Positions 14,365 to 36,702 of a stretch of DNA of 64,000 nucleotides are shown in pieces. The notes under the pieces were generated by a model, which was given only the letters and a program-made list of their open reading frames with translations, did not search any database and had not been told where the DNA came from. This DNA is from Larkinella rosea (GTDB lineage: Bacteria; Bacteroidota; Bacteroidia; Cytophagales; Spirosomataceae). Position 1 is the first letter of the stretch, and each line of letters opens with the position of its first letter. The stretch covers positions 744,001 through 808,000 of the forward strand of contig NZ_RQJO01000008.1 of the NCBI RefSeq assembly GCF_003858635.1, given 5' to 3'. Made by a program: the position numbers and the translations under genes.

Positions 14365-14799
14365 AAACCGTATAGCGGCCAACCGCCGGTTTCGGCCATA
14401 CGACTCTTTTGGCCGCTGCATCGTTTTGTCTGACATAAACCGCTACTACGGCACAGTTTTTGTTTATTGTCTGATAAATAGGAAAAAAACTTTGCGGAAT
14501 ATTTTCAGATAAGCCAATATAGTATTCCGTAAAAAACTATTTATTGAATTATTTAAAGAATATTCCTCCTTCTCTGCCTTTTTTATAGAATATTGTGTAG
14601 TTAGTATCATTTCTGCTTTCTATATTTAGAATGTAATACTTAAAAGAAGCTAGAAAGAGTTTGTCTGATTTTAAAGATAAACTGCTTTCAGAATTAAGCA
14701 GAAATGCGGTTCTGAACAGTTGGACTTTACGGCCTGACTCCTTCCCTTTTTCTGTCGGAAACCCACTTTTTTTACTTATTATTTTATTTACTCAACGTT
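14365..14799. other. 435-bp intergenic region upstream of ugd
   Basis: An inverted repeat AGCGGCCAA (14374-14382) / TTGGCCGCT (14409-14417) follows the phosphatase stop and could be a weak terminator. The rest is very AT-rich and presumably carries the ugd promoter, but I see no clear TTTG...TAnnTTTG pair. The region ends in the start motif TTTACTCAACGTTATGAA at 14787-14804. Confidence 0.5.
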
Positions 14800-14804
14800 A
14801 TGAA
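14787..14804 (+). promoter_or_regulatory. Start-codon motif TTTACTCAACGTTATGAA (ugd copy)
   Basis: This 18-bp sequence contains the ATG of ugd. It recurs identically at 16173-16190 and 17043-17060, and in shortened or interrupted form before the starts of the genes beginning at 31490, 33219, 35686 and 36550 on the minus strand. Confidence 0.75.
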
Positions 14805-16131
14805 AATTGCAGTTGTTGGAACCGGTTACGTTGGACTCGTAACCGGAACCTGCTTTGCCGAGACCGGCAACCAGGTAACTTGTGTCGACATTGATGAGCG
14901 GAAAGTTCAAAAGCTCATCAACGGTATCATCCCCATCTACGAACCCGGTCTGGATGTGTTGTTTAATCGCAATACGGCCGAAGGTCGTCTGAAATTCACC
15001 ACCAGTCTGGCCGAAGGCATTGAAGGTGCGGAAGTGATCTTTCTGGCCCTGCCAACTCCACCGGGCGAAGACGGTTCTGCCGACCTGAAATACATCCTCA
15101 AAGTCGCCGGTGATCTGGGGCAACTACTCAAGGATTATGCGGTTATCGTCGACAAAAGCACCGTGCCGGTCGGAACGGCCGAAAAAGTACGGGATTATAT
15201 CTCGCTGGGCGCTCAGGTCGATTTCGACGTGGTATCGAACCCCGAATTCCTCCGCGAAGGGGTTGCCATCGAAGACTTCATGAAACCCGACCGCGTCGTG
15301 ATCGGGACCAAGTCCGAACGGGCCAAAGCCGTAATGAACAAGCTGTATGCTCCCCTGGTGCGGCAGGGTAACCCGGTGATTTTCATGGACGAACGTTCCG
15401 CTGAAATGACCAAATATGCCGCCAACGCGTTCCTGGCCGTCAAGATTTCCTTCATGAACGAAATTGCCAACCTCTGCGAAAAAGCCGGAGCCAACGTCGA
15501 CGACATTCGCCGGGGCATCGGAACCGACAGCCGGATTGGCAAGCGGTTTTTATTCGCCGGAATTGGCTACGGCGGGAGCTGCTTCCCGAAAGACGTACAG
15601 GCGCTGGCCAAAACCGCTCAGGAATATGCGTATGATTTCAAGATTCTGAAGTCGGTGATGGACGTGAATGCGAAGCAGAAAACGAAACTGCTTCCGGTTA
15701 TCAATCAGCACTTTAACGGGGATCTGAAAGGTAAAACCATCGCCATCTGGGGGCTGGCCTTCAAACCGTATACCGACGACATCCGGGAAGCTCCGGCGCT
15801 GGAAAACATTCAGGCATTGCTGGAAGCAGGCGCGAAAGTGACGGCTTACGATCCGGAAGCGATGGACAATGTGAAAAACGTGCTGGGTAGCAAAATCACG
15901 TACGCCCACACCTCGTATGCTGCACTTGATGACGCCGATGCGCTGGTGATCATGACCGAGTGGCCGATGTTCCGGACGCCGGAATTCACCAAAATGAATC
16001 TGCTGCTGAAAAATAAAGTCATTTTCGACGGTCGGAACCTCTACGAACTGGAGCAAATGAAAGAAATGGGCTACACATATTACAGCGTTGGTCGGGAAAC
16101 CGTTTCTCAAGAGGTTGAACAACCGGCTTGA
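14800..16131 (+). CDS. ugd: UDP-glucose 6-dehydrogenase
   Basis: A 443-residue enzyme of the UDP-glucose/GDP-mannose dehydrogenase family. It oxidises UDP-glucose twice to UDP-glucuronate with 2 NAD+. The NAD-binding motif is at the start (MKIAVVGTGYVGLVTG), the central helix region contains NPEFLREG, the catalytic Cys is in GYGGSCFPKD, and the C-terminal domain has IWGLAFKPYTDDIREAP. Length and motifs are complete. UDP-GlcA formed here is the substrate of the decarboxylase two genes downstream. The start overlaps the 18-bp motif described separately. The protein ends in EVEQPA, echoed by the EAIEQPA end of Cmk. Confidence 0.96.
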   Translation: MKIAVVGTGYVGLVTGTCFAETGNQVTCVDIDERKVQKLINGIIPIYEPGLDVLFNRNTAEGRLKFTTSLAEGIEGAEVIFLALPTPPGEDGSADLKYILKVAGDLGQLLKDYAVIVDKSTVPVGTAEKVRDYISLGAQVDFDVVSNPEFLREGVAIEDFMKPDRVVIGTKSERAKAVMNKLYAPLVRQGNPVIFMDERSAEMTKYAANAFLAVKISFMNEIANLCEKAGANVDDIRRGIGTDSRIGKRFLFAGIGYGGSCFPKDVQALAKTAQEYAYDFKILKSVMDVNAKQKTKLLPVINQHFNGDLKGKTIAIWGLAFKPYTDDIREAPALENIQALLEAGAKVTAYDPEAMDNVKNVLGSKITYAHTSYAALDDADALVIMTEWPMFRTPEFTKMNLLLKNKVIFDGRNLYELEQMKEMGYTYYSVGRETVSQEVEQPA

Positions 16132-16144
16132 TGCCATCCAACTC

Positions 16145-16171
16145 CTACCTGCCGGTATTCCAGGCAGGTAG
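16145..16171. other. 9-bp hairpin in the ugd-cmk gap
   Basis: CTACCTGCC (16145-16153) and GGCAGGTAG (16163-16171) form a perfect stem with a 9-nt loop, directly before the start motif at 16173. No T-run follows, so attenuation or RNA processing is more likely than termination. Confidence 0.5.
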
Positions 16172-16185
16172 CTTTACTCAACGTT

Positions 16186-16197
16186 ATGAACTTTTAA
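16186..16197 (+). other. Upstream mini-ORF MNF before cmk, within the start motif
   Basis: The ATG inside TTTACTCAACGTTATGAA (motif at 16173-16190) does not open cmk here. It opens a three-codon frame, ATG AAC TTT TAA, ending nine bases before the cmk ATG at 16207. Translation is not proven, but the motif coincides with the true start in ugd. Confidence 0.5.
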
Positions 16198-16206
16198 GTT
16201 GTCTGC

Positions 16207-16998
16207 ATGAAACGGGTCCCGATTACGTACAGCACGAAAATTATCATTGCCATTGACGGATACTCGAGTTGCGGAAAAAGCACAACGGCGAAGCAGGTTG
16301 CGGCACGGTTGGGCTATACGTACATCGACACCGGAGCCATGTACCGGGCGGTTACGCTGCATTTTCTTCAGCGCCGGGTCGAACTGACCAATCCGGAAGC
16401 GGTTACCAGTGCGCTCGATAGCCTGCACATTGCTTTCAGTTTCAATCCGGAGACCGCTTGCAATGAAACGTATCTGAACGGCGTGAACGTCGAAAACGAA
16501 ATCCGGAAGCTCTACGTCGCCAATCTGGTTCCTGAAGTGAGCGCCATTCGGGAGGTACGCCGTGCGATGGTTACGCAGCAGCAGGCAATGGGCCGGAAAG
16601 GCGGAATTGTTATGGATGGCCGCGATATCGGAACCCACGTATTTCCGGAAGCCGAGCTGAAAGTATTCATGACAGCCGACCCTATTATTCGGGCCGAACG
16701 CCGTCAGATTGAACTGTGGGCTAAAGGCGAAGCCGTTGAACTGCATGAAATCGCGGAAAACATCAAAAAACGTGATCATCTGGATACAACCCGCACCGAA
16801 AGTCCACTGCGTCGGGCCGACGATGCGCAATTGCTTGACACTTCATTCTTTACCATCGACGAGCAGGTTGACTGGGTCATTCGTGCTTACAAAGCGAAGC
16901 TGGAGTCACCTGTCGAGTCGCAACGTGCTGATTTCCAGTATGCAGGAAAGCAGGTGGGACGAGAGAAACTGCCGGAGGCAATTGAACAACCTGCCTGA
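16207..16998 (+). CDS. cmk: Cytidylate kinase (CMP/dCMP kinase)
   Basis: A 263-residue protein of the Cmk family, which phosphorylates CMP and dCMP with ATP. The P-loop is IAIDGYSSCGKSTTAKQVA and the CMP-binding segment is YIDTGAMYRAVTL; GGIVMDGRDIGTHVFPEA, the AERRQ lid and the later RDHLDTTRTESPLRRADDA complete the family pattern. A roughly 35-residue C-terminal tail follows the usual end. Its place between ugd and the UDP-xylose synthase gene is unusual; it may supply CDP/CTP for the CMP-sugar made by the cytidylyltransferase at 30807-31490. It could also be the cell's only Cmk; other copies cannot be assessed from this window. Confidence 0.93.
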   Translation: MKRVPITYSTKIIIAIDGYSSCGKSTTAKQVAARLGYTYIDTGAMYRAVTLHFLQRRVELTNPEAVTSALDSLHIAFSFNPETACNETYLNGVNVENEIRKLYVANLVPEVSAIREVRRAMVTQQQAMGRKGGIVMDGRDIGTHVFPEAELKVFMTADPIIRAERRQIELWAKGEAVELHEIAENIKKRDHLDTTRTESPLRRADDAQLLDTSFFTIDEQVDWVIRAYKAKLESPVESQRADFQYAGKQVGREKLPEAIEQPA

Positions 16999-17055
16999 CA
17001 AAATTTAGCACTTTCCGTCGGAATCAACGACCGCCGGGGAGCTTTACTCAACGTT

Positions 17056-17082
17056 ATGAACCTTTTTAAGCAGCTTGTATGA
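17056..17082 (+). other. Upstream mini-[11 protein letters not shown] overlapping the next start
   Basis: The ATG of the third motif copy (17043-17060) opens an eight-codon frame whose TGA (17080-17082) overlaps the ATG (17079-17081) of the UDP-xylose synthase gene in an ATGA junction. This arrangement is typical of translational coupling. Confidence 0.5.
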
Positions 17083-18059
17083 AGCGCATTTTAATTACGG
17101 GTGGAGCTGGATTTCTGGGCTCGCACCTTTGTGACCGATTTATCAGGGAAGGCTACCACGTTATTGCCATGGATAATCTCATTACCGGGGATATCCGTAA
17201 TATCGAGCACCTGTTTCCGAACCCCAACTTCGAATTTCATCACCACGATGTATCGCAGTTTATTCACGTTGCGGGTGATCTTGATTACATTCTGCATTTC
17301 GCGTCGCCCGCCAGCCCGATCGATTACCTGAAGATTCCGATCCAGACGCTGAAAGTGGGTTCGTTAGGCATTCATAATTGCCTGGGTTTAGCCCGCGTCA
17401 AAAATGCCCGGGTTTTAATTGCTTCAACGTCAGAAGTATACGGCGACCCGACGGTGCATCCGCAGCCCGAAGAATACTGGGGAAATGTCAATCCGGTGGG
17501 TCCGCGTGGCGTTTACGACGAAGCCAAGCGGTTTCAGGAAGCAATCACGATGGCGTATCACACCTACCACGGTCTGGAAACCCGCATTGTCCGCATTTTC
17601 AATACGTACGGTCCGCGCATGCGCCTGAACGATGGACGGGTGTTACCGGCTTTTATTGGCCAGGCGCTGCGGGGTGAAGACCTGACCATTTTCGGTGATG
17701 GCAGCCAGACCCGCTCCTTTTGTTACGTCGACGACCTGGTGGAGGGCATTTATCGGCTGCTGTTGAGCGATTATCCTCATCCGGTCAATATCGGAAACCC
17801 GGTCGAAATCACGATTAAGGAATTTGCCGAAGAGATCATCAAACTGACCGGAACCAGCCAGAAGGTGGTGTATAAACCGTTGCCAACCGACGATCCGAAA
17901 CAACGCCAGCCGAATATCACGAAAGCAAAAGTGATTTTAGACTGGGAGCCTCAAGTGTCGCGGGCCGAAGGATTGCGAATTACGTATGATTACTTCAAAA
18001 GTTTGCCGGAAGAAGAACTTTACAAAGCGGCTTATCACCGGGAGTTTAGCACAACATAG
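17079..18059 (+). CDS. uxs: UDP-glucuronate decarboxylase (UDP-xylose synthase)
   Basis: A 326-residue extended SDR enzyme matching UDP-glucuronic acid decarboxylases, which convert UDP-GlcA to UDP-xylose with tightly bound NAD. Visible features are [16 protein letters not shown], the HHHDVSQ and [11 protein letters not shown] segments, STSEVYGDP, the catalytic [11 protein letters not shown] (YxxxK) and the [10 protein letters not shown] motif. Its position downstream of ugd fits the pathway UDP-Glc to UDP-GlcA to UDP-Xyl. The start is set by the ATG at 17079, which overlaps the stop of an upstream mini-ORF. Confidence 0.93.
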
Positions 18060-18086
18060 GTATCGCCTTACTAACGATCTTGAAAA

Positions 18087-18830
18087 ATGAAGACAGACAT
18101 TTTTGGTGTTCATTATGATGTAACGAATTATGATGAGGCATCAACGGTAATTATAAAGAAAGCCAAATCAAAGACTTCTTTCGGCGTCACTGCTTTAGCG
18201 GTTCACGGTTTAATCGAATGTTATAAAAACCGGGATCTTAAGGAAAAAGTAAATAAAATTGACCTGATCGTACCGGACGGACAACCAGTGCGCTGGGCAA
18301 TGAATAGCTTTTATAAAACCGGTCTGAAAGATCGGGTATACGGTCCCACGTTAACACTGGAAGTGTTAAAAAAAGCCAATGAGAATGGCCTGTCGGTTTT
18401 TTTATACGGCAGCAAGGAAAACACGTTGCGGTTGTTTATAAAAAACATCAATGACTGGTTTCCGAACATCAAAATTGCGGGCCAGCATGCCGATCGATTC
18501 CGGGATGCTACGCCGGAAGAAGACGAAGCCGACATCGCTAAAATTAACGCATCCGGCGCACACATCGTCCTCGTTGGCCGGGGTTGCCCGCGCCAGGAAG
18601 TCTGGGTTTCCAATCATTTAGGAAAAGTAAATGCCGCCATGATGGCCGTGGGTGCGGCTTTTGATTTTCACGCCGGTACGCTTCCACAGGCACCGGTCTG
18701 GCTTCAAAAAAATGGGTTAGAGTGGCTTTTCAGATTAATTCAGGAGCCAAACCGGCTCTGGAAACGCTATTTATTTACGAATAGTACCTTCATTATGCTT
18801 TTTATTAAACGTAAAGTTGGACTTAATTAA
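18087..18830 (+). CDS. WecG/TagA/CpsF family glycosyltransferase (GT26)
   Basis: A 247-residue protein of family GT26, which in other bacteria adds ManNAc/ManNAcA or glucose residues to undecaprenyl-linked intermediates at the inner face of the membrane. Family hallmarks are VNKIDLIVPDGQPVRWAMN, GLSVFLYGSKENTL, ASGAHIVLVGRGCPRQE and AMMAVGAAFDFHAGTLPQAP. The length is normal. It lies in the plus-strand arm 27 nt after the UDP-xylose synthase gene and probably acts early in repeat-unit assembly. Donor and acceptor are not inferable. Confidence 0.92.
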   Translation: MKTDIFGVHYDVTNYDEASTVIIKKAKSKTSFGVTALAVHGLIECYKNRDLKEKVNKIDLIVPDGQPVRWAMNSFYKTGLKDRVYGPTLTLEVLKKANENGLSVFLYGSKENTLRLFIKNINDWFPNIKIAGQHADRFRDATPEEDEADIAKINASGAHIVLVGRGCPRQEVWVSNHLGKVNAAMMAVGAAFDFHAGTLPQAPVWLQKNGLEWLFRLIQEPNRLWKRYLFTNSTFIMLFIKRKVGLN

Positions 18831-18860
18831 ATCATTAAATAGTCTAAAATCACATTTCAT

Positions 18861-19934: not shown

Positions 19935-20077
19935 GAACCCGCGATACAGATCGAATTACGGATATAACCGTAGGCTATCACCGAAAATGGTACATAAACG
20001 AATCGAAATTGCTTTGTCCTGAGTTTGTGAAAAACTGGGGCAAAGCAACTTTTTTTAAACCGTAATCGGCTTGTGTT

Positions 20078-21646: not shown

Positions 21647-21672
21647 TAGAAACAATCGCTGATAAAATCCTG

Positions 21673-21693
21673 ACCGCAGAAATGCGGTTTTTT
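21673..21693 (+). terminator. Intrinsic terminator of the plus arm
   Basis: ACCGCA-GAAA-TGCGGT (21673-21688), a short GC stem with a GNRA-type loop, followed by five T. It is placed after the stop at 21646 and before the convergent glycosyltransferase gene. Confidence 0.8.
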
Positions 21694-21749
21694 AAGTTAT
21701 CACTATCCGGATTTATCAACAGATAAAATCAAAATTTTAAGGATTCTAA

Positions 21750-24629: not shown

Positions 24630-25514
24630 TCAAAATAAATCATCGTAATTGATACGATCGAATGCGTTTAGGTTTCCACCAGCTGTTGCATTGTATACTT
24701 TTCTGCCGTTTCTCTCAAATACTTCATTGGCTTTACGAAAACCCATTTCCATCCGCTCAACATTAGGATCGTGCCAGCGGTATCCTTTCCCAAAGTAATC
24801 TGGTGAAAAGTGGTTTGGATCAGCCGTAGTTGAAAGAATATCAAAACCAGCTTCATGCTTATTAGAGATAATTGCTTCTTCCGGAATTTTGTATGAATGA
24901 TCAAAACCGATCATGTATACTTTCTCAAATCCCATGTAATAAGCAAGTTGTAAGCATAAATAGGTTACACTACCACCAACACCGAGGAAACGCACTATTT
25001 TTTCTGAAAATTGCGGATCAAAACTATCGACATCTGAATAAGTTCTGATGACATTCATATTGATAGTCTTATGATCTGGTGCAACGGCATAATTTAAATT
25101 CGCACCAAAAAACTTGTACTGGGGTCCAGTATATTTTTTAATTTCTGCCCCCCGGTCTTCCGCTACTAAATTGTCTTCAAGTACATAATACGTTGGATGA
25201 AATTGCATTTTTTCATAATTCAGATAAATTGCATTGACACCGAACGTATATTCATTTTTAAGCTTCTTTAAATCCAGCTTGTTGAGCGATGGGCCGTTGC
25301 CAATAATAAAACAACGTTTACCTTTATGAATATCCTTAAAGGAAGCAAGCTTGCGCTCATTTTCATTTAAAAATATTCCGGCCCCGGCTAACCTAAAACG
25401 CATGCTGTAAGCAAGCTGAGTTAGAATGGGAGTGTTTCTGTCAAAGGAATTACGATCTACTAAAAGATAATAGAAGGGCGCAACTATTTTTTTGAAAATC
25501 GGATTGTGTCTCAT
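24630..25514 (-). CDS. MptE-like/DUF115 protein
   Basis: A 294-residue protein with the Rossmann-like pattern of DUF115/6-hydroxymethylpterin pyrophosphokinase MptE-like proteins: KGKRCFIIGNGPSLNKLDL, YTFGVNAIYL, FHPTYYVLED, FLGVGGSVTYLCLQLAYYMGFEKVYMIGFDHSY and a C-terminal RKVYNATAGGNLNAF. Relatives occur in flagellin glycosylation and polysaccharide loci, where they are suspected glycosyl- or sialyltransferase-like enzymes. The ATG overlaps the stop of the flippase gene (ATGA at 25511-25514), implying translational coupling. A glycan-assembly role is inferred from context. Confidence 0.78.
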   Translation of the reverse strand: MRHNPIFKKIVAPFYYLLVDRNSFDRNTPILTQLAYSMRFRLAGAGIFLNENERKLASFKDIHKGKRCFIIGNGPSLNKLDLKKLKNEYTFGVNAIYLNYEKMQFHPTYYVLEDNLVAEDRGAEIKKYTGPQYKFFGANLNYAVAPDHKTINMNVIRTYSDVDSFDPQFSEKIVRFLGVGGSVTYLCLQLAYYMGFEKVYMIGFDHSYKIPEEAIISNKHEAGFDILSTTADPNHFSPDYFGKGYRWHDPNVERMEMGFRKANEVFERNGRKVYNATAGGNLNAFDRINYDDLF

Positions 25515-26953
25515 ACGTTGAATAGAGTTAAAATTTTAAAACTGGATAATATAATTAGTGTCAATAAGGGGATCGCCATACTCCGGCGGATAAATCGCCA
25601 AAGATCTTCCTGTAATGAACTAATGGATAAGTCTACGTTCCACCAGTTGTTTATTAAAAGATTTGATAAACCGTGAGCGACTGGAAAGGCCAATATACCG
25701 TAAGAAGGTAGCATCAGCCAGACAATTCCTAAATTTGCAATACCGGTTATTACAGCACTTTTATAAAAAGGAACTCGGTTCGTGGTTACATAGATTTGCG
25801 CATGCATTGCGTGGTTTCGTTCCAGAAACCATACAAAAGCCATAAAAATCAATATTTTTGAGTCAATTAACGTTGTGTTTGCTTTTACTAGAGTGAGTAT
25901 CCAATCGCCGAAGAAAATCAAAACGAGCATACCTAAGACAAACACTAACAATGATTTTTTGATGGATTGCGCACTGATCGTCGATAATTGCTCAATGTTA
26001 TTTTTAACCCGCAAAGTTGAGAATAATGGCAGCTTTGAGTAAAATGGTGCCTGCGAAAATTGAGCTACTGTTGTTACTAATTTTAATGAAAGTAAATAAG
26101 ATGCCAGACTCACCGGGTTTGCTACATACGAATAGATTAATCCTGTTGCCTGGCTTACTCCGGTTGAGCATAAAATCAGCACACCGGACTTCCAGGTTGG
26201 CCCCCAACACCATTTGAAGATCTCCCTATCGAAAATAAAGGCATTAAGCTTCCGAAACATCCCGTCGCAAATCTGGTATTCCAGCAAGGCACTTCGAAGC
26301 ACCAGAATGATAGAAAATAGTAACTGAATAAAAGATAACCATGCCAGATTTGCTCCGATATAGACTACCAGAATGGAAGCCAGGGCACTAAGTAAATTAA
26401 TAATGATATTCCAACGGTTAATCAGTGCGACATGATTGGTGCCAATAATAACTGCGTCGAATTTTTTTGATATAAATTGAAAGAAAATACTAACAATAAA
26501 GAGATAATAGGCCGACCATAATGTTCCGGTATTTGTATTGCTTTTAAGAATGATATTCTCGATTGAAAAATAAGAAAAAATGAATACTATAAAAAGTACT
26601 AAAAATCCAAGTGCGATATAGGTCACATTGATTGTTCCATAGATTCTGTTCATTAAATCCCAATTTGGTTTTCCATCGCTTTGAATTTCCGGTTTCCCAA
26701 AATCTTCGATAGACCTGAGGCCGCTAAATGCGTAAGATATAATTCTTGAAAACGTTGGATAAAATCCGAAATCTACAACAACTGTAAAGGAATTAATTGT
26801 TAATAATAAATACCAAAATGCAATTTCGTCTACATTGTACTTAATTAGTATTAAAGGCGTTAATACTAATAGTTTAATACTATTACTTAGCATACTCCCC
26901 CAGGTCATCGCTGTAGGAGAATTCCATAGGTAATTTGTTGCCTTTTTAATCAT
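25511..26953 (-). CDS. Wzx-type polysaccharide flippase
   Basis: A 480-residue very hydrophobic protein with about 12-14 predicted membrane helices, matching oligosaccharide flippases of the MOP/PST superfamily (for example LLVLTPLILIKYNVDEIAFWYLL near the N-terminus). It would move undecaprenyl-linked repeat units across the inner membrane. It is flanked by 4-bp overlaps on both sides (with 26950-27741 and 24630-25514), so it belongs to a tightly coupled operon. Sequence is weakly conserved in this family; the call rests on topology, length and the presence of a polymerase two genes upstream. Confidence 0.85.
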   Translation of the reverse strand: MIKKATNYLWNSPTAMTWGSMLSNSIKLLVLTPLILIKYNVDEIAFWYLLLTINSFTVVVDFGFYPTFSRIISYAFSGLRSIEDFGKPEIQSDGKPNWDLMNRIYGTINVTYIALGFLVLFIVFIFSYFSIENIILKSNTNTGTLWSAYYLFIVSIFFQFISKKFDAVIIGTNHVALINRWNIIINLLSALASILVVYIGANLAWLSFIQLLFSIILVLRSALLEYQICDGMFRKLNAFIFDREIFKWCWGPTWKSGVLILCSTGVSQATGLIYSYVANPVSLASYLLSLKLVTTVAQFSQAPFYSKLPLFSTLRVKNNIEQLSTISAQSIKKSLLVFVLGMLVLIFFGDWILTLVKANTTLIDSKILIFMAFVWFLERNHAMHAQIYVTTNRVPFYKSAVITGIANLGIVWLMLPSYGILAFPVAHGLSNLLINNWWNVDLSISSLQEDLWRFIRRSMAIPLLTLIILSSFKILTLFNV

Positions 26954-27741: not shown

Positions 27742-27772
27742 AAAATTGTTTAATTATTGATTGCTATATTTC

Positions 27773-29119: not shown

Positions 29120-29133
29120 CTTTTTCTCTTTTA

Positions 29134-29862: not shown

Positions 29863-29865
29863 GGG

Positions 29866-30810
29866 TTATGCAGTTACACCAATTTCCAGAAACTCAAACA
29901 TTGAACGGATGGCCTGATGGCTGGCGCGTCGAACGCCCTGAATGGTATTGGAGCCGTTGTGGGTGCCGAAAATGCACCGATCAAAATTCCGCAGTTCCGA
30001 GTCCATTGGCAGTGGTTCGGTTTCGAAAACATCCAGACCAGCCGAATGAACTTTACCGCTTTTGAGACCTTCGATCAAAGCGGCCTCGTCGATAATGGGC
30101 CCTCTGGACACATTCACAATCCGGACGCCGTCTTTCATCAATTGAATCGTTTCGGTGTTGATCAGGTGTTTGGTCGAAGGCGTCAGTGCGCAGGTCGTTA
30201 CCACAAAATCCGCCGTTGCCAGTTCTTCAGGGAAACTCAAAAACCGGTACGCTTCCTCGTCTGCTTCGGTCCGTTTCGCAAAGGGGTCATACACGTTGAT
30301 GTGCATGTCGAACGCTTTCAGAAAACGGGCGGTCGCTTTGCCAATATCGCCAAAACCAACCAGGGCAACGGTATGGCCTGCCAGCGACATTCCCGCCGGT
30401 TTTACCCAGTTACCGGCCCGCACTTCGCGGTCGATGTAATACGTTTGCCGGGCCAGCCCCAACACATAGGATACGGCGATGGTGGCTACTTCCGAGCCAA
30501 ACATCATGGGCGTGTTGATGATCGGAATTCCTAATTCTTTGCAGGCTTTGAAATCGACGTTATCGACGCCAATTCCCCATTTAACGGCGGCTTTCAGCTT
30601 GCCGGCTTTCCCGGCGCGGAAGATGCGCTCCGTGGCCTGATCGTCACCGATGATCCAGCCGTCGACGGTCGGGACGAGTTCGAGCAGTTCTTCTTCGGAA
30701 AGAATCTGAACGACTTTCGGCGCCACGACTTCAATGCCGACTTCTTCAAAAAGGGGTAAAAACTCCGCTAATTGCCCCAGCATCGGTGGGCAGGTAATCA
30801 ACACTTTCAT
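29866..30810 (-). CDS. D-isomer-specific 2-hydroxyacid dehydrogenase (phosphoglycerate dehydrogenase-like)
   Basis: A 314-residue NAD-dependent dehydrogenase. The nucleotide-binding motif is TVALVGFGDIGKATARFL. Catalytic residues can be placed as Arg near VTTCALTPSTKHLI, Glu in DVFETEPLP and His in IFGTHNGSNT; NVSRGPIIDEAALIEGL is the usual signature. At 314 residues it is the short form without a regulatory ACT domain. Its neighbours suggest oxidation or reduction of a sugar-acid or glycerate-type precursor for the polysaccharide rather than serine synthesis. Its ATG overlaps the stop of the cytidylyltransferase gene (30807-30810). Confidence 0.88.
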   Translation of the reverse strand: MKVLITCPPMLGQLAEFLPLFEEVGIEVVAPKVVQILSEEELLELVPTVDGWIIGDDQATERIFRAGKAGKLKAAVKWGIGVDNVDFKACKELGIPIINTPMMFGSEVATIAVSYVLGLARQTYYIDREVRAGNWVKPAGMSLAGHTVALVGFGDIGKATARFLKAFDMHINVYDPFAKRTEADEEAYRFLSFPEELATADFVVTTCALTPSTKHLINTETIQLMKDGVRIVNVSRGPIIDEAALIEGLKSGKVHSAGLDVFETEPLPMDSELRNFDRCIFGTHNGSNTIQGVRRASHQAIRSMFEFLEIGVTA

Positions 30811-31490
30811 AGGGCCAGTTCAGGATAAAGTTCAGTAAAGAGGAATTCAGCTACTTTAAAGTTCAGTTCGACATCGATGTCCTGGGCTTCGATGTCCGGA
30901 ATCTCGTACAGGAAGGGACGGTCGCCGATGCGGTTATGTTTCTGAAGCAATGTTTCTTTTTTAAAGAGATACATGCAGGAATTTTCCATGTAAATGGGCG
31001 GCAAATCCTGCGTCCGGAGCAGAATAGCCGGATTGTGATTGACGGCCCGGGCCAACGGATCCCACAACCGGGTCTGCAACCGGGTCACGCCAAACAAGGT
31101 GTCGTAGATCGGGTAGTTTTTCAAAAACTGCTGAATGCCTTTCTCAACGGTTTCGGGCGACAACAGCGGATTAGTGCTGTGGGTCTGCAAATAAAAGTCG
31201 GCGGGAATCTGGTCACAGGTGTTCAGCAACACGTTATTCATCGGAATGGCGCCATCACGCAGGTGCTTGGGCCGTTCCAGAACCGTTACGGTCGGATACA
31301 ATTCCTGAACCTGTTCGATAATCGTCGGACTGTCGGTATCGATGACAACCTGGGTGATGGACGGACACTCCAGCAGGGTGTCTACGATCCGGTGGAACAG
31401 AGGTTTGCCAGCAAAATCGCGGTAGTTTTTGCCGGGAACGCGCTCACTGGAATGGCGCATTGGAATGATGGCTGCTACGGAATGATTCAT
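30807..31490 (-). CDS. Acylneuraminate cytidylyltransferase family protein
   Basis: A 227-residue CMP-sugar synthetase of the NeuA/PtmB/KdsB-like family, which activates a 2-keto-3-deoxy sugar acid with CTP. The nucleotide-binding motif reads IIPMRHSSERVPGKNYRDFAGKPL, a variant of the usual PAR-x-GSKR. Later come VVIDTDSPTIIEQ, HSTNPLLSPETVEKG and DIEAQDIDVELNF. No NeuB-type condensing enzyme occurs in this window, so the substrate is open. ACTCAACGTTA at 31497-31507 lies six bases before the ATG, a copy of the start motif. Confidence 0.9.
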   Translation of the reverse strand: MNHSVAAIIPMRHSSERVPGKNYRDFAGKPLFHRIVDTLLECPSITQVVIDTDSPTIIEQVQELYPTVTVLERPKHLRDGAIPMNNVLLNTCDQIPADFYLQTHSTNPLLSPETVEKGIQQFLKNYPIYDTLFGVTRLQTRLWDPLARAVNHNPAILLRTQDLPPIYMENSCMYLFKKETLLQKHNRIGDRPFLYEIPDIEAQDIDVELNFKVAEFLFTELYPELAL

Positions 31491-31583
31491 ATAGATTAAC
31501 GTTGAGTTTTTTGCAAGACAGCCCGGCGGGTAATTTCTTTCAAACCCTTGCCTTTCCGGGTAGGTAAATCGGCTGTTTACCGA

Positions 31584-32528
31584 TTATTCATAAGCGATTT
31601 GTTTCCTGATGACCGGTTCCTGATTGCCCGATTTTTCCCGCCGGAATACTTCGTTCGGGTAGTAAAACCGTTCCCGAAGCGTGCGATCGAGTGTACCGAT
31701 AAACCGGTACCCCTGATACGTACCCCAGAATTGCAGAATCCGAAAAACCGGGATTTCGGTGACATGCTGCCAGAAGACCCGTTCCTGGATGGCCGTCACG
31801 TAATCGCTGATCAAATTCGATACGGATAAATACGCAAAATCCCAGAGGCCAAACTGCGCCATCGGCTTCAGCCGCTTGAAGGCAATCGCTTCCCGGTAAT
31901 ACCGATTGAATATCTTCCGGGGCGTTTCTTCGTGGACGTGCACAATCGTCGCATCGGCGTTGTAGGCAATCCGGTAGCTCCGTTGCAGGATTTCACTGGC
32001 CCAATGCAGGTCTTCCAGGCCCGTCAGTGATTCGTCGTACGGTAATTCCTGCCACAACGAACGCCGAATGGCCGTGTTGGCATTATTGCAAAACGGGATC
32101 TGCTGGTTGTAGTTGGAAACCGCCGGAAACCATTTGGCGAAGAGTTGTTGCTCCGAATACTTGCTTTGGCTGTTTCCGATCTGCCGTCCGTACGTGAGGG
32201 CCACTTTCGGATCTTCGAACGGCTTGACCATTTGATCAATCCAGTTCGTATAAACCGGGTAAACGTGCGCGCTGGCAAACAGGAGAATATCGCCGGTTGC
32301 GTGCTGACAGCCAATGTTGAGGGCCCGTCCGAACGAAAACTCCTCGGGACGAATCCGGACGATTTTGGCTCCGTAGCTTTCGGCGATGCGAACTGTATTA
32401 TCTTTGGAGCCGGAGTCGACCAGAATAACTTCCAGGTCAATGCCGATTTCCTGCTGCTGGATTCCGTTCAGTAATTTACCAATATGGGCCTCTTCGTTGA
32501 AGGCTCGTATAATTAGGCTGCAAGTCAT
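31584..32528 (-). CDS. GT2 family glycosyltransferase (rhamnosyltransferase-like)
   Basis: A 314-residue GT-A glycosyltransferase. Opening CSLIIRAFNEEAHIGKLLNGI, then VILVDSGSKDNTVRIAESYGAKIVRI, the FGRALNIGCQHATGDILLF segment and SAHVYPVYTNWID, a form seen in family 2 rhamnosyl- or mannosyltransferases where the DxD is modified. ALTYGRQIG and LTGLEDLHWASEI follow. It is 34 nt downstream of the priming sugar transferase gene and so probably adds the second sugar of the repeat unit. The donor is unknown. Confidence 0.9.
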   Translation of the reverse strand: MTCSLIIRAFNEEAHIGKLLNGIQQQEIGIDLEVILVDSGSKDNTVRIAESYGAKIVRIRPEEFSFGRALNIGCQHATGDILLFASAHVYPVYTNWIDQMVKPFEDPKVALTYGRQIGNSQSKYSEQQLFAKWFPAVSNYNQQIPFCNNANTAIRRSLWQELPYDESLTGLEDLHWASEILQRSYRIAYNADATIVHVHEETPRKIFNRYYREAIAFKRLKPMAQFGLWDFAYLSVSNLISDYVTAIQERVFWQHVTEIPVFRILQFWGTYQGYRFIGTLDRTLRERFYYPNEVFRREKSGNQEPVIRKQIAYE

Positions 32529-32562
32529 AGGATTCGATTGCTTTCAGATTTTTAACCCTATT

Positions 32563-33219
32563 TCACCAGGCGTTTTTATCTCCTTTCACCATGCGCTCCA
32601 CCGTCCACCAGCAAATCTTGACATCCAGCGGGATTGACGCGTATTTGGTATACCAGATATCGTAGCGAACCCGGTGGCGCATCTGATTCAGCTCCGACGT
32701 TTCACCCCGCAATCCCTTGGCCTGAGCCAGACCGGTTATTCCGGGTTTGGTTTTAAACCGGTTTTTGTATTCCGGTATCAGCGGCATGTACTGAACATCC
32801 AGCGGAATAGGGTGGGGCCTGGGACCGACTATACTCATGTGACCGGCGATGACATTCAGCACCTGGGGCAACTCATCGAGGTTGGTTTTCCGGAGGATGC
32901 GGCCCACGCGGGTTACCCGGATGTCATTGTGGGTAGCCTGTTTGAAAGAAGCGTTTTTCTGGTATTTCATGGTCCGGAACTTCAGGCAGGGAAACGGCCG
33001 ACCATTCCGCCCCGATCGCAACTGGACGAACAGGATTGGTCCCCGTGATTCCAGCCGGATCAGCAATCCAATCAACGGAATAAACCAGGACAGAATGAAT
33101 ACGCTAACCAAAAGCGATACCGCAATATCGAAGACCCGCTTTGCTACCGGCTTCTGCTTCCCCGCAGCCGTCTCACTGACGACGTAGTACGAGGAGTCGG
33201 GTTGTAACAAGTCAATCAT
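32563..33219 (-). CDS. Undecaprenyl-phosphate sugar phosphotransferase (priming enzyme)
   Basis: A 218-residue bacterial sugar transferase, the short form with a single N-terminal hydrophobic segment (IAVSLLVSVFILSWFIPLIGLLI) and the conserved cytosolic catalytic region: GPILFVQLRSGRNG, PFPCLKFRTMKY, RVGRILRKTNLDELPQ and MSIVGPRPHPIP. It transfers a sugar-1-phosphate from a nucleotide sugar to undecaprenyl phosphate, starting the repeat unit. The start is preceded by an interrupted copy of the start motif (33217-33239: TTTACTCAAC, five extra bases, then ACGTTATGA). Confidence 0.94.
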   Translation of the reverse strand: MIDLLQPDSSYYVVSETAAGKQKPVAKRVFDIAVSLLVSVFILSWFIPLIGLLIRLESRGPILFVQLRSGRNGRPFPCLKFRTMKYQKNASFKQATHNDIRVTRVGRILRKTNLDELPQVLNVIAGHMSIVGPRPHPIPLDVQYMPLIPEYKNRFKTKPGITGLAQAKGLRGETSELNQMRHRVRYDIWYTKYASIPLDVKICWWTVERMVKGDKNAW

Positions 33220-33328
33220 AACGTTTCCAGTTGAGTAAATACAGATTGGGCAATGTTCTTACCAACCGGGATAAAAACCCCGGTCGGTAAGCTGTCAAAA
33301 AGTGATTGTCTGGAGAATGCGAAACCGC

Positions 33329-35686
33329 TTAGCTACCCGGTAACAAACGTTTCAGAAAGGATTTTTTGGCAGGAGAATCTTGTTCGTAGTAACCACCAGA
33401 TCCATAGCCGTAGCCATACCCATAGCCATAGCCGTAGCCATACCCGTAGCCATTTCCTTCGTTGATGGAGTTCAGAATCAGGCTCAGTTTCCGGAAACGC
33501 TGTTCTTTGTACATGACATCCACCATCTTCATGTGTTGTTTTGGCGTTACGTCGTGGCGCACAACATACATGGTGGCATCCGTTTTGTCGGCCAGAATCT
33601 GGGCGTCAGTAACCAGGCCAACGGGTGGTGAATCCACGATGATGTATTGGAACCGCTCCCGGAGCTGATGAAACAGTTCATCCACTTTGTCGCTCACCAG
33701 AAGTTCCGCCGGGTTGGGGGGAATCGGGCCACTGGTCAGGATGTAATAATTATCCATTCCCGGTACGGGTTGTAGAATATCATCCAGCGTAACCTGGCCA
33801 ACCAGAAAGTTACTGATCCCGACGGTATTCGGCATGGCCAGCATTGAGTGCAGCTTCGGACGACGCAAGTCCATTTCCAGAATGACCGTAGGGCGATCGA
33901 TGAGCGCGAGACTGGCACCGAGGTTCAGGGAAATGAACGATTTACCTTCCCCACTGATACTGGACGTAAACAGAATGGCCAGACTCTCGTTGTTTGACCG
34001 CAGGAATTGCAGATTGGTTCGCAGTGCCCGGACTTGCTCGGCCACAATCGACCGGCTGTTGGACGTTACGACCAGCGGGAACTTATGCTTGGCATACGAA
34101 ATCTCCCCAACAATGGGCGTACTGGTCAGCTCTTCGATGTCCGTGCGTTTGCCAATTCGGTTATTCAGCATATCGCGGGTCGCAAAAGCACCAACCGGAA
34201 TCAGCAGACCAATGGCTCCGAATAGCATAAAGACCAGACTCTTTTTGGGCTTGATCGGTTTGCTGCCGCTGCGCGCAATGTCGATGGTCCGGCTATCCGC
34301 AATGGCCGAAGCATACGACAGGGCGGTTTCTTCGCGTTTGGCCAGCAGGTACGTATACAGATTGTTTTTAATGGCCTGCTGGCGCGTAATGTCCAGCAAC
34401 GCCCGTTCCTTGCGGGGAACCGACCGGATCATCGATTCGAACTTGCGGTTGTGCGCCATCAACTTCTGACGGGTGCCCGTCATGATGGTTTTCATCGTCT
34501 GAATATTATCGCTGATGTTCGCTTTGGTCGCTTTGATCTGTTCGTCCACCGACCGCAGGATCGGGTTGTTTTCCGAAGTGGTTTTCGCCAGATTCTCGCG
34601 TTTCAGTTGTAGTTCCGATAAATTGGCAATGAGTCCAAGCAGGGTAGGATCAGTCAGCCCCAGTGTTGAAGGAGCAGCGCCCGATTCGTCTGATTTAGTC
34701 CGGATATAACGTTCCACATCTTCCAGCGCCCCTATCTGAATATTGACCTGGCTCAGCTGAGCGTCGTTCTGCTGAACATTTTGCAGAAAAATCTGGGATT
34801 CGGTGCTGATATCTGTAATGCCTTCCGCTGATTTGAAGCTCTCGACATCCCGCTCAACGGTAGCCAGTTCACCGGAAATAAGTTTTAACCGTTCTTCGAT
34901 GAAGTCCAGGGTGTTAGACGCAACCAGGTTCTTGTCTTTCAGAGCCGCATCATTATACTCTTCCACAATCTTGTCGAGAATATTCCGTCCTTTTTCCGGA
35001 ACAGCGGTTTCCAGGCTAAGTACCAATACCGTTGATTGTTTGCTGGTCGCTTCCACTTTCAGGTCTTCCACGTAGTTTTGAATCACCTCCTGTTTGGGAG
35101 CTACGTGAACGATAACCGGTTCTTTGTCGAGCTTGGTGTTTTTGTTCGTGAAAATCCGCAGCCGGCCATACGCCGTATTCAGGCTCTGGTTAACCGGGTA
35201 TTTCTTGTCACCGATTTTAACGGTTTGCGGATCTACAAATTCGACGGTGAGGTCTTCTTCGTATAACAGCGGTTTCGGATGTTCGATGAGGAGACGGAAC
35301 GGAGAGGATTTGTAAATCTCGCGCTTCCCGACGGGGGTGTCGTGGAAATAGGTAATGTCCAATGCGAGCACATCGTTTACCTTCTCCATGATCGTGTACG
35401 ATTTCAGAATTTCAATTTCGTTTTCGACTACCTTCGAATCCGTGAAGAGATCCATCTCTTTCATGATGTTGTCGGCCGAAATTCCTTTCTTCTCGTCCTT
35501 GATCAAAATGCTGCTCTGGACTTTGTAGATCGGTACCTGGTATTGGAGGTACGCGTAACCGGCGGCTAAAGCAACGACAAGCGACAGCAGAAACCATTTC
35601 CAGTTTTTTAAATACCGGAAGAGTACCAGCCGGAGGTCAGGTTCTTTTTCCTCCTGCTGATGGTAGACATACGGTGTTGTGATCAT
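33329..35686 (-). CDS. Wzc/GumC-like polysaccharide co-polymerase and tyrosine autokinase (copy 1)
   Basis: A 785-residue inner-membrane protein. A Wzz-type chain-length domain with flanking membrane helices (WKWFLLSLVVALAAGYAYLQ; SLVFMLFGAIGLLIPVGAF) encloses a periplasmic coiled-coil region. The cytoplasmic BY-kinase has Walker A FTSSISGEGKSFISLN, Walker A' VILEMDLRRPK and Walker B YIIVDSPPVG. The C-terminal tyrosine cluster is a pure Gly-Tyr repeat (eight GY units) followed by GSGGYYEQD. It works with the Wza-like exporter upstream and is presumably dephosphorylated by the PHP phosphatase. ACTCAACAACGTTATGA precedes and includes the start. Confidence 0.94.
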   Translation of the reverse strand: MITTPYVYHQQEEKEPDLRLVLFRYLKNWKWFLLSLVVALAAGYAYLQYQVPIYKVQSSILIKDEKKGISADNIMKEMDLFTDSKVVENEIEILKSYTIMEKVNDVLALDITYFHDTPVGKREIYKSSPFRLLIEHPKPLLYEEDLTVEFVDPQTVKIGDKKYPVNQSLNTAYGRLRIFTNKNTKLDKEPVIVHVAPKQEVIQNYVEDLKVEATSKQSTVLVLSLETAVPEKGRNILDKIVEEYNDAALKDKNLVASNTLDFIEERLKLISGELATVERDVESFKSAEGITDISTESQIFLQNVQQNDAQLSQVNIQIGALEDVERYIRTKSDESGAAPSTLGLTDPTLLGLIANLSELQLKRENLAKTTSENNPILRSVDEQIKATKANISDNIQTMKTIMTGTRQKLMAHNRKFESMIRSVPRKERALLDITRQQAIKNNLYTYLLAKREETALSYASAIADSRTIDIARSGSKPIKPKKSLVFMLFGAIGLLIPVGAFATRDMLNNRIGKRTDIEELTSTPIVGEISYAKHKFPLVVTSNSRSIVAEQVRALRTNLQFLRSNNESLAILFTSSISGEGKSFISLNLGASLALIDRPTVILEMDLRRPKLHSMLAMPNTVGISNFLVGQVTLDDILQPVPGMDNYYILTSGPIPPNPAELLVSDKVDELFHQLRERFQYIIVDSPPVGLVTDAQILADKTDATMYVVRHDVTPKQHMKMVDVMYKEQRFRKLSLILNSINEGNGYGYGYGYGYGYGYGYGSGGYYEQDSPAKKSFLKRLLPGS
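33402..33452 (-). repeat. Hexanucleotide microsatellite coding for Gly-Tyr repeats
   Basis: About eight tandem hexamers (plus-strand variants CCATAG, CCGTAG, CCATAC, CCCGTAG) encode (GY)n at the kinase C-terminus. Units are in frame, so slippage would change the number of phosphorylatable tyrosines without breaking the reading frame. Confidence 0.85.
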
Positions 35687-35764
35687 AACGTTGTTGAGTA
35701 ATTAGGTACTATCGTTCGGCTGTTTGTCCGGAATACCAGACGGACAGCCATTGGTAATGCTTGC

Positions 35765-36550
35765 TTACCGGCGAATAATAACCGCTATCAGAGACAGCGC
35801 GCCGATGATGGATGGCAGAATGGTGTAAAAGCGATCGGCATAGGCCAAACGGGCTTTACCCGGTTCTACATAAATGACATCGTTTGGATGTAAATAATAA
35901 TAGGGTGACTTGAACAGGTCGCGCTGATTCATGTTGATGCGGCCAAATTCCCGTTTCCCGTTGGTTTCCCGAATCACCATGACGTTATCCCGGCGACCAT
36001 AAATCGTAATATCTCCTGCTAAGCTCAAGGCTTCTGTCAGCGTCATCTGCTCGTTCGGAACGCTGAACATCGAGGGCCGGGTGACTTCCCCCAAAACCGA
36101 TACCTTGAAATTCAGAAACCGTACGGCCACCGTTGGTTCTTTTAGAAAATTCTTCAGTTTTTCCTGAATCAGTTCCTGAGCGCCGGCCGACGTTAGGCCA
36201 AGCACTTTTATTTTTCCCGCCAGCGGCAGTTGAACATTACCCTGCGTATCGACCAGATAACCCACCACCGCCGTTACCGGAACCTGCCCGTTGACCGTCT
36301 GAAAAGAAGGCATCCGCTCGGCCGCAGCGTAAGGGTTAAAAAAACTGCTTGCTTCCGGATTCAGGCTGTTAACATTGATGCTTAATAAATCGTTAGGTTG
36401 GATAGTCGGGATGTACCGGTTGGTGATTTGTTCTATTATCCCCGTACTGTCAGTTGCCGGACTTTGAAAATAAGTGATTTGCTTCTGTGAGATGCAAGAC
36501 GAAAAACCAATTACCAGTAGGCCAAACGCGAGCCAATTCCAATTCTTCAT
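35765..36550 (-). CDS. Wza/GumB-like polysaccharide export lipoprotein
   Basis: A 261-residue outer-membrane export protein. The lipobox is GFSSC with Cys19. The polysaccharide-export domain starts at YIPTIQPNDLLSINVNSLNPEA, followed by an SLBB-type segment (VSVLGEVTRPSMFSVPNEQMTLTEALSLAGDITIYGRRDNVMVIRE) and HPNDVIYVEP. A C-terminal hydrophobic helix (FYTILPSIIGALSLIAVII) could span the outer membrane, as in Wza. It is the first gene of the minus arm, behind a well-formed promoter. TCTCAACGTATGAAG covers its start. Confidence 0.93.
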   Translation of the reverse strand: MKNWNWLAFGLLVIGFSSCISQKQITYFQSPATDSTGIIEQITNRYIPTIQPNDLLSINVNSLNPEASSFFNPYAAAERMPSFQTVNGQVPVTAVVGYLVDTQGNVQLPLAGKIKVLGLTSAGAQELIQEKLKNFLKEPTVAVRFLNFKVSVLGEVTRPSMFSVPNEQMTLTEALSLAGDITIYGRRDNVMVIRETNGKREFGRINMNQRDLFKSPYYYLHPNDVIYVEPGKARLAYADRFYTILPSIIGALSLIAVIIRR

Positions 36551-36702
36551 ACGTTGAGATTTTCGATCAAAAAATTAAGTACTTACTGTATTTATCTATT
36601 TGTCCGACAGAATCTACTCCAAACAGAGCTCATTTAAACCTTATTTGCCGTTAAAAAGGCTCTCACAATCCATTCTGGGCCGGTTTCAGTTGAGAACGGC
36701 AG

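What the first reader, a model, noticed from the sequence alone, without database searches (positions are those of the whole stretch)
14787..36559. Shared start-codon motif TTTACTCAACGTTATGA before many polysaccharide genes
The 18-bp TTTACTCAACGTTATGAA is identical at 14787-14804 (ugd start), 16173-16190 and 17043-17060. Variants overlap or closely precede four minus-strand starts: 31497-31507 (ACTCAACGTTA before the cytidylyltransferase), 33217-33239 (TTTACTCAAC, 5-base insert, ACGTTATGA), 35684-35700 (ACTCAACAACGTTATGA, Wzc) and 36548-36559 (CTCAACGTATGA, Wza). The overlap of 25511-25521 reads TTCAACGTATGA. I did not see it at starts outside the 14-36 kb locus. Position at the start codon suggests translation-level control, for example by an RNA-binding protein or a small RNA pairing with AACGTTGAGTAAA, coordinating both converging arms.
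Basis: partly seen in the sequence, partly recalled or inferred. Interest (0 to 1): 0.78.

Follow-up and report, generated by a model that had tools for sequence, protein, structure and literature searches.

The report
Start-codon sites for conserved small RNA
A short sequence repeated at the start codons of sugar-polymer genes is the exact mirror image of part of a predicted small RNA gene elsewhere in the same genome, so one tiny RNA may switch off many surface-polysaccharide genes at once.

Summary
TTTACTCAACGTTATGAA occurs exactly three times in the window; degenerate copies lie at five further starts of the same exopolysaccharide (EPS) locus. Two exact copies (16173, 17043) look like a local duplication.

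The key lies outside the window. The same genome (a Larkinella) carries the reverse complement inside an sRNA-like gene: promoter-like box, open arm with seed UUUUCAUAACGUUGAGUAAA, intrinsic terminator. Strong model hits occur in 61 of 121 genomes of the family. No Rfam family matches at cut-off; the terminator stem covaries.

Predicted pairing covers the AUG. Five of 21 called EPS genes reach -18 kcal/mol, against 0 of 925 others. At ugd of two relatives the only changes keep G·U pairs. Start-like copies are enriched in 22 genomes with strong sRNA hits (369 against 143 control) but not in 19 without (93 against 101), with exceptions both ways. A seed complement lies in the 3'UTR of a ytxH-like gene in the 11 closest of 22 homologues.

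Best reading: a new, apparently Hfq-independent trans-acting sRNA family that represses translation initiation, with the EPS locus as a Larkinella target cluster. Expression and repression are untested.

The parts
14787..14804 (+). sRNA-complementary site spanning the AUG of ugd (UDP-glucose 6-dehydrogenase, 14800-16131)
   Evidence: exact 18-mer; predicted duplex -27.4 kcal/mol; exact in 5 other Larkinella, two G.U-preserving changes in 2 more
14800..16131 (+). ugd
   Evidence: Pfam UDPG_MGDP_dh N, central and C domains
16145..16171 (+). mRNA hairpin directly upstream of the second site
   Evidence: predicted fold -25.8 kcal/mol for -60..+2; stems of other sequence but paired at the same place in L177, L179, L180, L181
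16173..16190 (+). sRNA-complementary site in the ugd-cmk intergenic leader
   Evidence: exact 18-mer; duplex -24.7
16186..16197 (+). mini-ORF M-N-F-stop whose AUG lies in the site; stop 9 nt before the cmk AUG
   Evidence: read directly; comparable mini-ORFs in relatives
16207..16998 (+). cytidylate kinase-like gene (cmk), lying between ugd and the epimerase, unlike in three other Larkinella
   Evidence: Pfam Cytidylate_kin; leader followed directly by ATGAAGCGCATTCTG in L177, L179, L181
17011..17041 (+). weaker hairpin upstream of the third site
   Evidence: predicted fold -13.2 kcal/mol
17043..17060 (+). sRNA-complementary site in the cmk-epimerase leader
   Evidence: exact 18-mer; duplex -24.7
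17056..17082 (+). mini-[12 protein letters not shown] whose stop overlaps the epimerase AUG (17079)
   Evidence: read directly
17079..18059 (+). NAD-dependent epimerase/dehydratase
   Evidence: Pfam Epimerase, GDP_Man_Dehyd
25511..25522 (-). site TTCAACGTATGA spanning the AUG of the MptE-like gene 24630-25514
   Evidence: duplex -18.9 / -18.7; Pfam MptE-like
31497..31507 (-). site ACTCAACGTTA, 6 nt upstream of the AUG of the cytidylyltransferase 30807-31490
   Evidence: duplex -15.4, the weakest of the set; Pfam CTP_transf_3; related site at one start each in L180 and L183, not domain-checked
33216..33239 (-). site TTTACTCAAC-TGGAA-ACGTTATGA spanning the AUG of the sugar transferase 32563-33219
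   Evidence: duplex -23.7 / -24.3 with internal loop; Pfam Bac_transf; same architecture in L178 and L180
35683..35701 (-). site TTACTCAACAACGTTATGA spanning the AUG of wzc (33329-35686)
   Evidence: duplex -18.4 / -18.2; Pfam Wzz, GNVR; same site in L180
36547..36558 (-). site CTCAACGTATGA spanning the AUG of wza (35765-36550)
   Evidence: duplex -19.5 / -20.7; Pfam Poly_export, SLBB

Best explanation
The motif is the target site of a trans-encoded small RNA of about 65-75 nt conserved in this bacterial family. SHOWN by sequence: the sRNA gene has a promoter-like box, a mostly unpaired 5' arm with seed UUUUCAUAACGUUGAGUAAA, and an intrinsic terminator. The seed is antisense to the start region of eight sites in the EPS locus: six gene starts and two mini-ORF starts placed so that they could couple to cmk and the epimerase. 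A complementary stretch also lies in the 3'UTR of a ytxH-like gene. INFERRED: the sRNA is transcribed; in many genera from an ECF-sigma-like promoter, hence perhaps under envelope stress. It pairs over the AUG and blocks 30S initiation (flavobacteria are described as lacking Shine-Dalgarno sequences), lowering export and initiating-transferase steps (wza, wzc, sugar transferase) and precursor supply (ugd) on both arms together. Blocking the mini-ORFs would lower cmk and the epimerase by translational coupling. The ytxH 3'UTR element is either another target or, more likely, a sponge that titrates the sRNA when ytxH is expressed.
For: 1) Antisense gene: 88 of 125 distinct exact-motif contexts read, on the opposite strand, as seed plus hairpin plus T-run. 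No Rfam match at gathering cut-off in 10 loci or the window. 2) 10 of 17 predicted pairs, all in the terminator stem, show two-sided compensatory changes. 3) Best E of 1e-7 or better in 61 of 121 family genomes (18 genera), including 9 of 9 Larkinella; outside the family the best hit is 42.8 bits. 4) Synteny: of 29 chosen loci, 22 hold a homologue of the ABC ATPase that neighbours the sRNA in the window's genome, and 20 hold SucC. 5) Pairing: 5 of 21 EPS genes at -18 kcal/mol or better, 0 of 925 others; 40 core-shuffled seeds give mean 0.05, maximum 1 in EPS. 6) Loops and inserts between fixed flanks, sites shifted relative to AUG, and ugd in L183 and L184 reading TTTATTCAATGTTATG, two C-to-U changes that keep G.U pairs. 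7) ACTCAACGN{0,10}ATGA: 369 against 143 control in 22 genomes with strong sRNA hits, 93 against 101 in 19 without. 8) Other targets: a 60-aa membrane protein start in 9 of 20 homologues, one with a pairing-preserving A-to-G change; the ytxH 3'UTR in the 11 closest of 22 homologues, 0 of 200 shuffled controls each.
Against: No expression data: the RNA, its ends and its action are predicted. Of 30 wza-homologue loci, 29 could be scored and only the window's own reaches -18; even the Larkinella G006 homologue does not (-9.2). Extra ugd copies in L182, L185, L187 and L188 show no site. Two exact window copies are probably one site duplicated. The seed's invariance is partly built in: loci were collected by exact match and the model was trained on them. 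37 of 125 contexts were not called sRNA-like; some are targets, two (L113, L156) look like missed sRNAs, others are chance matches. One search has exceptions both ways: with strong sRNA hits but no excess, G011 (6 against 9), G012 (14/13), G015 (6/6), G023 (5/8), G039 (6/7); without a strong hit but with excess, G032 (13/1) and G040 (11/4), both incomplete genomes. The 60-aa protein lacks the site in the window's own genome (-12.1), in G006, and in five other genomes with strong sRNA hits (G011, G021, G023, G024, G031). At -15 the background has 18 of 925 genes against a control mean of 21, so the 31490 site (-15.4) is not informative alone. The 33219 start is predicted largely folded (0.28 unpaired). 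The promoter rule had no chance control.
Confidence: 0.87

Rival explanations
1. The motif is a DNA operator or promoter element bound by a transcription factor or sigma factor shared by EPS genes.
For: Repeated identical 17-mers near gene starts and a shared functional theme.
Against: It overlaps the AUG and runs into the coding sequence; it tolerates 3-5 nt inserts and shifts relative to AUG; the changes at ugd in two relatives keep G.U pairing; the opposite-strand copies end in a terminator; 3'UTR copies sit just before terminators.
Confidence: 0.04
2. It is only the general translation-start context of this organism (A/C-rich leader plus ATGAAA).
For: ATGA and an A/C-rich leader are part of the motif; weak matches occur at many starts.
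Against: 0 of 925 other genes reach -18 kcal/mol; 19 family genomes without a strong sRNA hit show no overall excess of the pattern (93 against 101), 22 with it do (369 against 143).
Confidence: 0.04
3. The exact copies are just recent local duplications or a mobile repeat without regulatory role.
For: 16173 and 17043 share 22 identical bases and flank a cmk gene.
Against: It cannot explain the degenerate sites on the other arm, conservation at ugd in 5 other Larkinella, or the antisense genes across the family.
Confidence: 0.03
4. An RNA-binding protein rather than an sRNA reads the motif at the start codons.
For: The sites are in RNA; Bacteroides uses RNA-binding proteins such as RbpB (PMC11697453, passages and section 8 seen).
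Against: A protein alone would not explain 17-21 nt of antisense complementarity to a conserved terminator-ended gene, nor changes that keep G.U pairs; the motif has no GGA core of the CsrA kind (recalled).
Confidence: 0.05

Closest known systems
FopS/GibS sRNA family of Bacteroides (PMC11697453; passages and section 8 seen)
   Same: Multicopy paralogous sRNAs of Bacteroidota with a single-stranded 5' stretch holding the seed and a Rho-independent terminator; [quoted passage not shown]
   Different: Conserved in Bacteroidaceae with SusC-type targets; no Rfam family reached its gathering cut-off on our loci, though I did not check that FopS is in the release used. Here the seed is a continuous antisense of AUG plus about 13 upstream nt, at eight sites of one biosynthetic locus.
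Sigma-E-dependent sRNAs MicA/RybB of enterobacteria (recalled)
   Same: In many genera here, a stress-sigma-type promoter-like box precedes a short sRNA gene aimed at envelope genes.
   Different: Those use Hfq (recalled); 0 of 19 genomes here have PF17209. The GTC-type box is in 38 of 85 loci; three Larkinella loci pass my rule only with ATC.
Rfp18 of Flavobacterium psychrophilum (PMC9723704; abstract, passages and part 1 of section 15 seen)
   Same: A conserved sRNA of Bacteroidota with several related targets.
   Different: Strongly structured, predicted to pair through its third stem-loop, with metalloprotease targets.
Qrr sRNAs of Vibrio (Rfam RF00378)
   Same: Multicopy sRNAs (recalled); a weak hit on our sRNA strand (21.5 bits, E 0.071).
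   Different: Far below the gathering score of 50.
sRNA sponges of enterobacteria, 3'UTR- or spacer-derived decoys (recalled)
   Same: A transcript 3' end carries the complement of an sRNA seed next to a terminator.
   Different: Here in a ytxH-like 3'UTR; sponge action is inferred only.

Membership tests
trans-encoded base-pairing sRNA | own transcription unit ending in an intrinsic terminator | tested here: met
   seed-hairpin-T-run in 88 of 125 distinct contexts; compensatory changes in the stem
trans-encoded base-pairing sRNA | own promoter | tested here: inconclusive
   TATATTTG 27 nt upstream of the seed in L001; ECF-like spacing rule passed by 41 of 85 distinct loci, failed by 44, no chance control
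trans-encoded base-pairing sRNA | specific complementarity to mRNAs encoded elsewhere | tested here: met
trans-encoded base-pairing sRNA | expressed, and alters target expression | not testable with these tools
   no RNA data available
Hfq-dependent sRNAs | Hfq in the genome | tested here: not met
   PF17209 in 0 of 19 genomes; the control found it in 5 of 14 well-known genomes
FopS/GibS sRNAs | match to the family model or R1 seed | tested here: inconclusive
   no Rfam family at gathering cut-off in 10 loci; presence of FopS in the release not checked; the R1 letters were not available to me
[quoted passage not shown]
   same architecture; several genomes with four or more model hits, e.g. 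G038 with four at E 1.3e-7 or better; weaker hits may be chance
Qrr RNA (RF00378) | gathering score 50 bits | tested here: not met
   21.5 bits
ECF-sigma-controlled sRNA | ECF-type promoter in the window's own genome | tested here: inconclusive
   L001 passes the loose spacing rule (AAC-N17-ATC) but lacks CGTC and has a TAnnTTTG box
sRNA sponge | seed complement in another transcript, conserved | tested here: met
   ytxH 3'UTR in the 11 closest of 22 homologues, 0 of 200 controls each; none in the 10 more distant that could be scored
sRNA sponge | titrates the sRNA | not testable with these tools
   needs experiment

The most novel reading that the evidence does not exclude
This bacterial family runs a complete RNA-level regulon without Hfq. 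A multicopy sRNA family, driven in many genera by a stress-type ECF promoter, carries a nearly fixed seed that is a ready-made antisense of the translation start. Genomes recruit genes into the regulon by acquiring a start tag of the type ACTCAACGTTATGA; here eight sites in one EPS locus, including mini-ORFs that act as sRNA-responsive couplers behind a structurally conserved hairpin. A 3'UTR sponge on the ytxH-like gene closes the loop.
Probability: 0.45. Interest if true: 0.85.

Novelty: new variant of a known kind. Interest (0 to 1): 0.76.

Why it matters
It would be a new sRNA family, conserved in many genera of one bacterial family and not matched by any curated RNA family at cut-off. It would also be a clear case of how sRNAs find mRNAs where neither Hfq nor Shine-Dalgarno pairing is at hand: by direct antisense to the start codon. 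It predicts coordinated shut-off of EPS synthesis, and a natural sponge; both can be tested with one deletion and one reporter. The seed and its complement give a marker for reading post-transcriptional regulons in environmental Bacteroidota from sequence alone.

Tried and rejected
Operator or promoter element: rejected because of position over the AUG, tolerance of inserts, and opposite-strand copies inside terminator-ended genes. General start context: rejected and, overall, by genomes without the sRNA. Conservation of EPS targets across the family through wza: tested, negative. Known RNA families: none at gathering cut-off; below it only trpB (22.9 bits) and Qrr (21.5 bits) in 241 bases of L001. 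Rfp18 as the same RNA: rejected from the text. Hfq dependence: rejected. An antisense transcript from the ugd-cmk leader was considered because the model hits it in G008 (42.5 bits); by eye no T-run follows the hairpin on that strand, so not adopted. Literature: nine searches gave no description of this RNA in the held open-access library; I saw listings only, except two papers (PMC9723704, PMC11697453). Subscription papers are not held.

Limits of the counts. The 925 background genes come from 60 stretches of 20 kb (L212-L271, 1.2 Mb) plus the window outside 13,000-37,500. L268 and L271 were taken because they held partial motif matches, and several others lie near such hits; this favours finding sites, yet none reached -18. 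ORFs whose start lies within 25 nt of a stretch's end were dropped. One search used 13 of the 20 stretches fetched. One search used 85 of 88 loci (duplicates or short upstream dropped). One search merged identical contexts. The start pattern also counts the sRNA genes themselves. Genomes were split as strong or not at best E 1e-7. In one search, three of the nine positive homologues (G047, G016, G036) were those that suggested the test; six were new. In one search, three of the eleven (G000, G006, G047) had been seen before and the G036 site had been fetched without knowing its gene; seven were new. One of the 22 (L493) could not be scored. One search tested the best homologue per genome only. 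Of the 20 model hits fetched several are training loci, and one (L353) is from outside the family. Family and genus names beyond record titles, including which genera belong to Spirosomataceae, are recalled.
Full report
WHAT IS THERE. The 18-mer TTTACTCAACGTTATGAA lies exactly at 14787, 16173 and 17043 on the plus strand. The locus is an EPS cluster: ugd, cytidylate kinase, epimerase, WecG-type transferase and Wzi on one arm; glycosyltransferases, a Wzy_C-domain protein, cytidylyltransferase, sugar transferase, Wzc-like and Wza-like proteins on the other. The genome is a Larkinella: genus-mates G004, G005, G007 and G008 have contigs whose lengths equal those of L. knui, L. punicea, Larkinella sp. 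C7 and L. terrae records.

CHANCE AND LOCATION. The 17-mer has 5 exact copies in 8.17 Mb; at up to one mismatch the reversed control has none in any of 9 Larkinella genomes. The three exact window copies are not three independent events: 16173 and 17043 share 22 identical bases and flank a cmk gene, while in L177, L179 and L181 the leader is followed directly by the epimerase-like start.

THE OTHER COPIES. The two remaining exact copies in the genome (C10:1901175, C15:119614) are outside long ORFs. Read on the opposite strand they are seed, hairpin, T-run. Of the 80 rows shown, 8 are plainly from other groups (two Haemophilus, Saprospiraceae, Granulicatella, Binatia, Alkalitalea, Alkanindiges, Oscillospiraceae), 4 bear only a broader label, and the rest are genera I recall as Spirosomataceae, such as Larkinella, Spirosoma, Fibrisoma, Runella, Dyadobacter, Persicitalea and Rhabdobacter. 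Of 125 distinct contexts then held, 88 passed a terminator rule on the antisense strand and 37 did not. Among 73 distinct sequences the terminator stem is rebuilt with other bases: 10 of 17 predicted pairs have two-sided changes. The invariance of the 17-mer there is by selection. A covariance model led to 20 fetched hits; 17 of 20 keep AACGTTGAGTA while the bases round it vary. Several of these are training loci, so this is supporting only.

DISTRIBUTION AND SYNTENY. Of 121 family genomes, 101 have a hit at E 0.01, but weak hits occur outside the family too; at E 1e-7 there are 61 genomes in 18 genera, with 9 of 9 Larkinella. In 148 genomes drawn from the order, 59 have a hit at E 0.01, and the best outside the family has 42.8 bits. 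In L189 the sRNA lies about 150 nt downstream of an ABC-transporter ATPase gene, with a SucC-like gene next to it. Of 29 chosen loci, 22 hold the ATPase homologue (one only in part) and 20 hold SucC.

PROMOTERS. By a loose rule (AC, 16-18 nt, [G/A]TC at a set distance from the seed) 41 of 85 distinct loci pass, 38 of them with GTC, mostly as TGTGACYT-N17-CGTC, like an ECF sigma promoter as I recall it; 44 fail, and no chance control was run. Larkinella L001 passes only with ATC and has TATATTTG, matching the TAnnTTTG consensus given in PMC9723704 section 15.

PAIRING WITH THE WINDOW. Predicted duplexes are -27.4 (ugd), -24.7 and -24.7 (leaders), -18.7 (25514), -15.4 (31490), -24.3 (33219), -18.2 (35686) and -20.7 (36550) kcal/mol. 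Over starts of 946 called genes, 5 of 21 EPS genes reach -18 and 0 of 925 others do. Forty seeds with the core shuffled but the anti-AUG part kept give a mean of 0.05 (maximum 1) in EPS and 3.6 elsewhere. At -17 four other genes pass against a control mean of 6.2, and at -15 eighteen against 21.2: weak pairing means nothing here. The seed is 0.68 unpaired on average in the predicted sRNA fold.

WHY RNA PAIRING. (a) The sugar-transferase site is split by a loop, TGGAA in the window and CTGGA in L178 and L180, with both flanks kept; the wzc site with its insert is the same in L180. (b) At ugd in L183 and L184 the site reads TTTATTCAATGTTATG: both changes are C to U and keep G.U pairs. Further ugd copies in L182, L185, L187 and L188 have no site. 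(c) A 60-aa membrane protein has the site at its start in 9 of 20 homologues, all 9 in genomes with strong sRNA hits; G012 has CTCGACG, again pairing-preserving. Eleven lack it, including the window's own genome and six others with strong hits (G006, G011, G021, G023, G024, G031). (d) ACTCAACGN{0,10}ATGA is enriched as a group in genomes with the sRNA: 369 against 143 in 22 genomes, 93 against 101 in 19. Five genomes with strong hits show no excess, and two without (G032, G040) do. (e) In the window's genome that pattern has 26 matches against 4 control. In 12 of 26 the ATG opens an ORF of 46 codons or more that could be a gene start, among them ugd, the cytidylyltransferase, a second sugar transferase, a DUF4142 protein, a DUF2383 protein and an SDR.

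THE LEADER. Downstream of ugd the window, L177, L179, L180 and L181 have a hairpin of different sequence, two or three bases, the exact site, and a short ORF. L178 has the ugd site but no such leader. I infer that blocking the short ORF lowers the next gene by coupling. The element also resembles an inverted sRNA gene; the model scores it 42.5 bits in G008.

THE 3'UTR PARTNER. C14:150302 in the window's genome is the seed complement, with one mismatch, in the 3'UTR of a YtxH-like gene just before a terminator. Comparable elements, each with one mismatch to the 17-mer, occur in 8 of 9 Larkinella genomes; G005 gave none within one mismatch. Their link to ytxH was checked by homology only for G000 and G006. 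Searching YtxH homologues without regard to the motif, the 11 closest of 22, from seven genera, all have it (-19.5 to -33.5 kcal/mol, 0 of 200 shuffled controls each). Of the 11 more distant, 10 could be scored and none has it. Here the kept part runs TGATTTACTCAAC in most, matching the sRNA beyond the seed, and the AUG part varies: expected for a sponge or a 3'UTR target.

MECHANISM. Shown: gene structure, conservation, complementarity. Inferred: transcription, repression by blocking initiation, stress control, coupling, sponge action. Hfq was found in 0 of 19 genomes searched, while the control search works, so action would be Hfq-independent or helped by another protein.

AGAINST. No other wza homologue scored has the site (29 of 30 loci scorable), so EPS control looks like a Larkinella feature and the family-wide regulon is broader. 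Some genomes with the sRNA show no enrichment. Nothing here is experimental.

NOVELTY. Nine literature searches (listed under Tried and rejected) and Rfam gave no description. It works like FopS/GibS of Bacteroides, but no shared family was shown. I call it a new variant of a known kind. On re-checking the calls I corrected several statements; none required a change of odds.

Noticed in passing
G000:C14:149925-150320 (L191, L459): Anti-seed element in the 3'UTR of a YtxH-like gene, present in the 11 closest of 22 homologues (seven genera); a candidate sponge.
   Followed up: yes
16145-16171 and 17011-17041: Hairpins directly upstream of the leader sites; in relatives the stem sequence differs but is paired.
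   Followed up: partly
16207-16998: A cytidylate-kinase gene between ugd and the epimerase, flanked by duplicated copies of the sRNA site.
   Followed up: partly
L072, L085, L111, L131, L141, L158: Tandem sRNA copies about 160 nt apart (about 500 nt in L141), with different terminator stems and 5' arms.
   Followed up: no
L149, about 2936-2972 (+): Two anti-seed copies in tandem (TTTACTCAACGTTATCATA then TTTACTCAACGTTATGA), the second opening only a 6-codon ORF; possible double sponge.
   Followed up: no
G000:C15:526192-536357 (L268, L293, L294): Second cluster of sites: a sugar-transferase start, a 46-codon ORF start and the start of a large Ig-domain protein.
   Followed up: partly
L349: One sRNA-model hit appears to follow directly on a coding sequence, so some family members may be 3'UTR-derived.
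   Followed up: no
L413, L275: DUF2383 genes in two genera share the identical start tag ACTCAACGAAATCATGA.
   Followed up: partly
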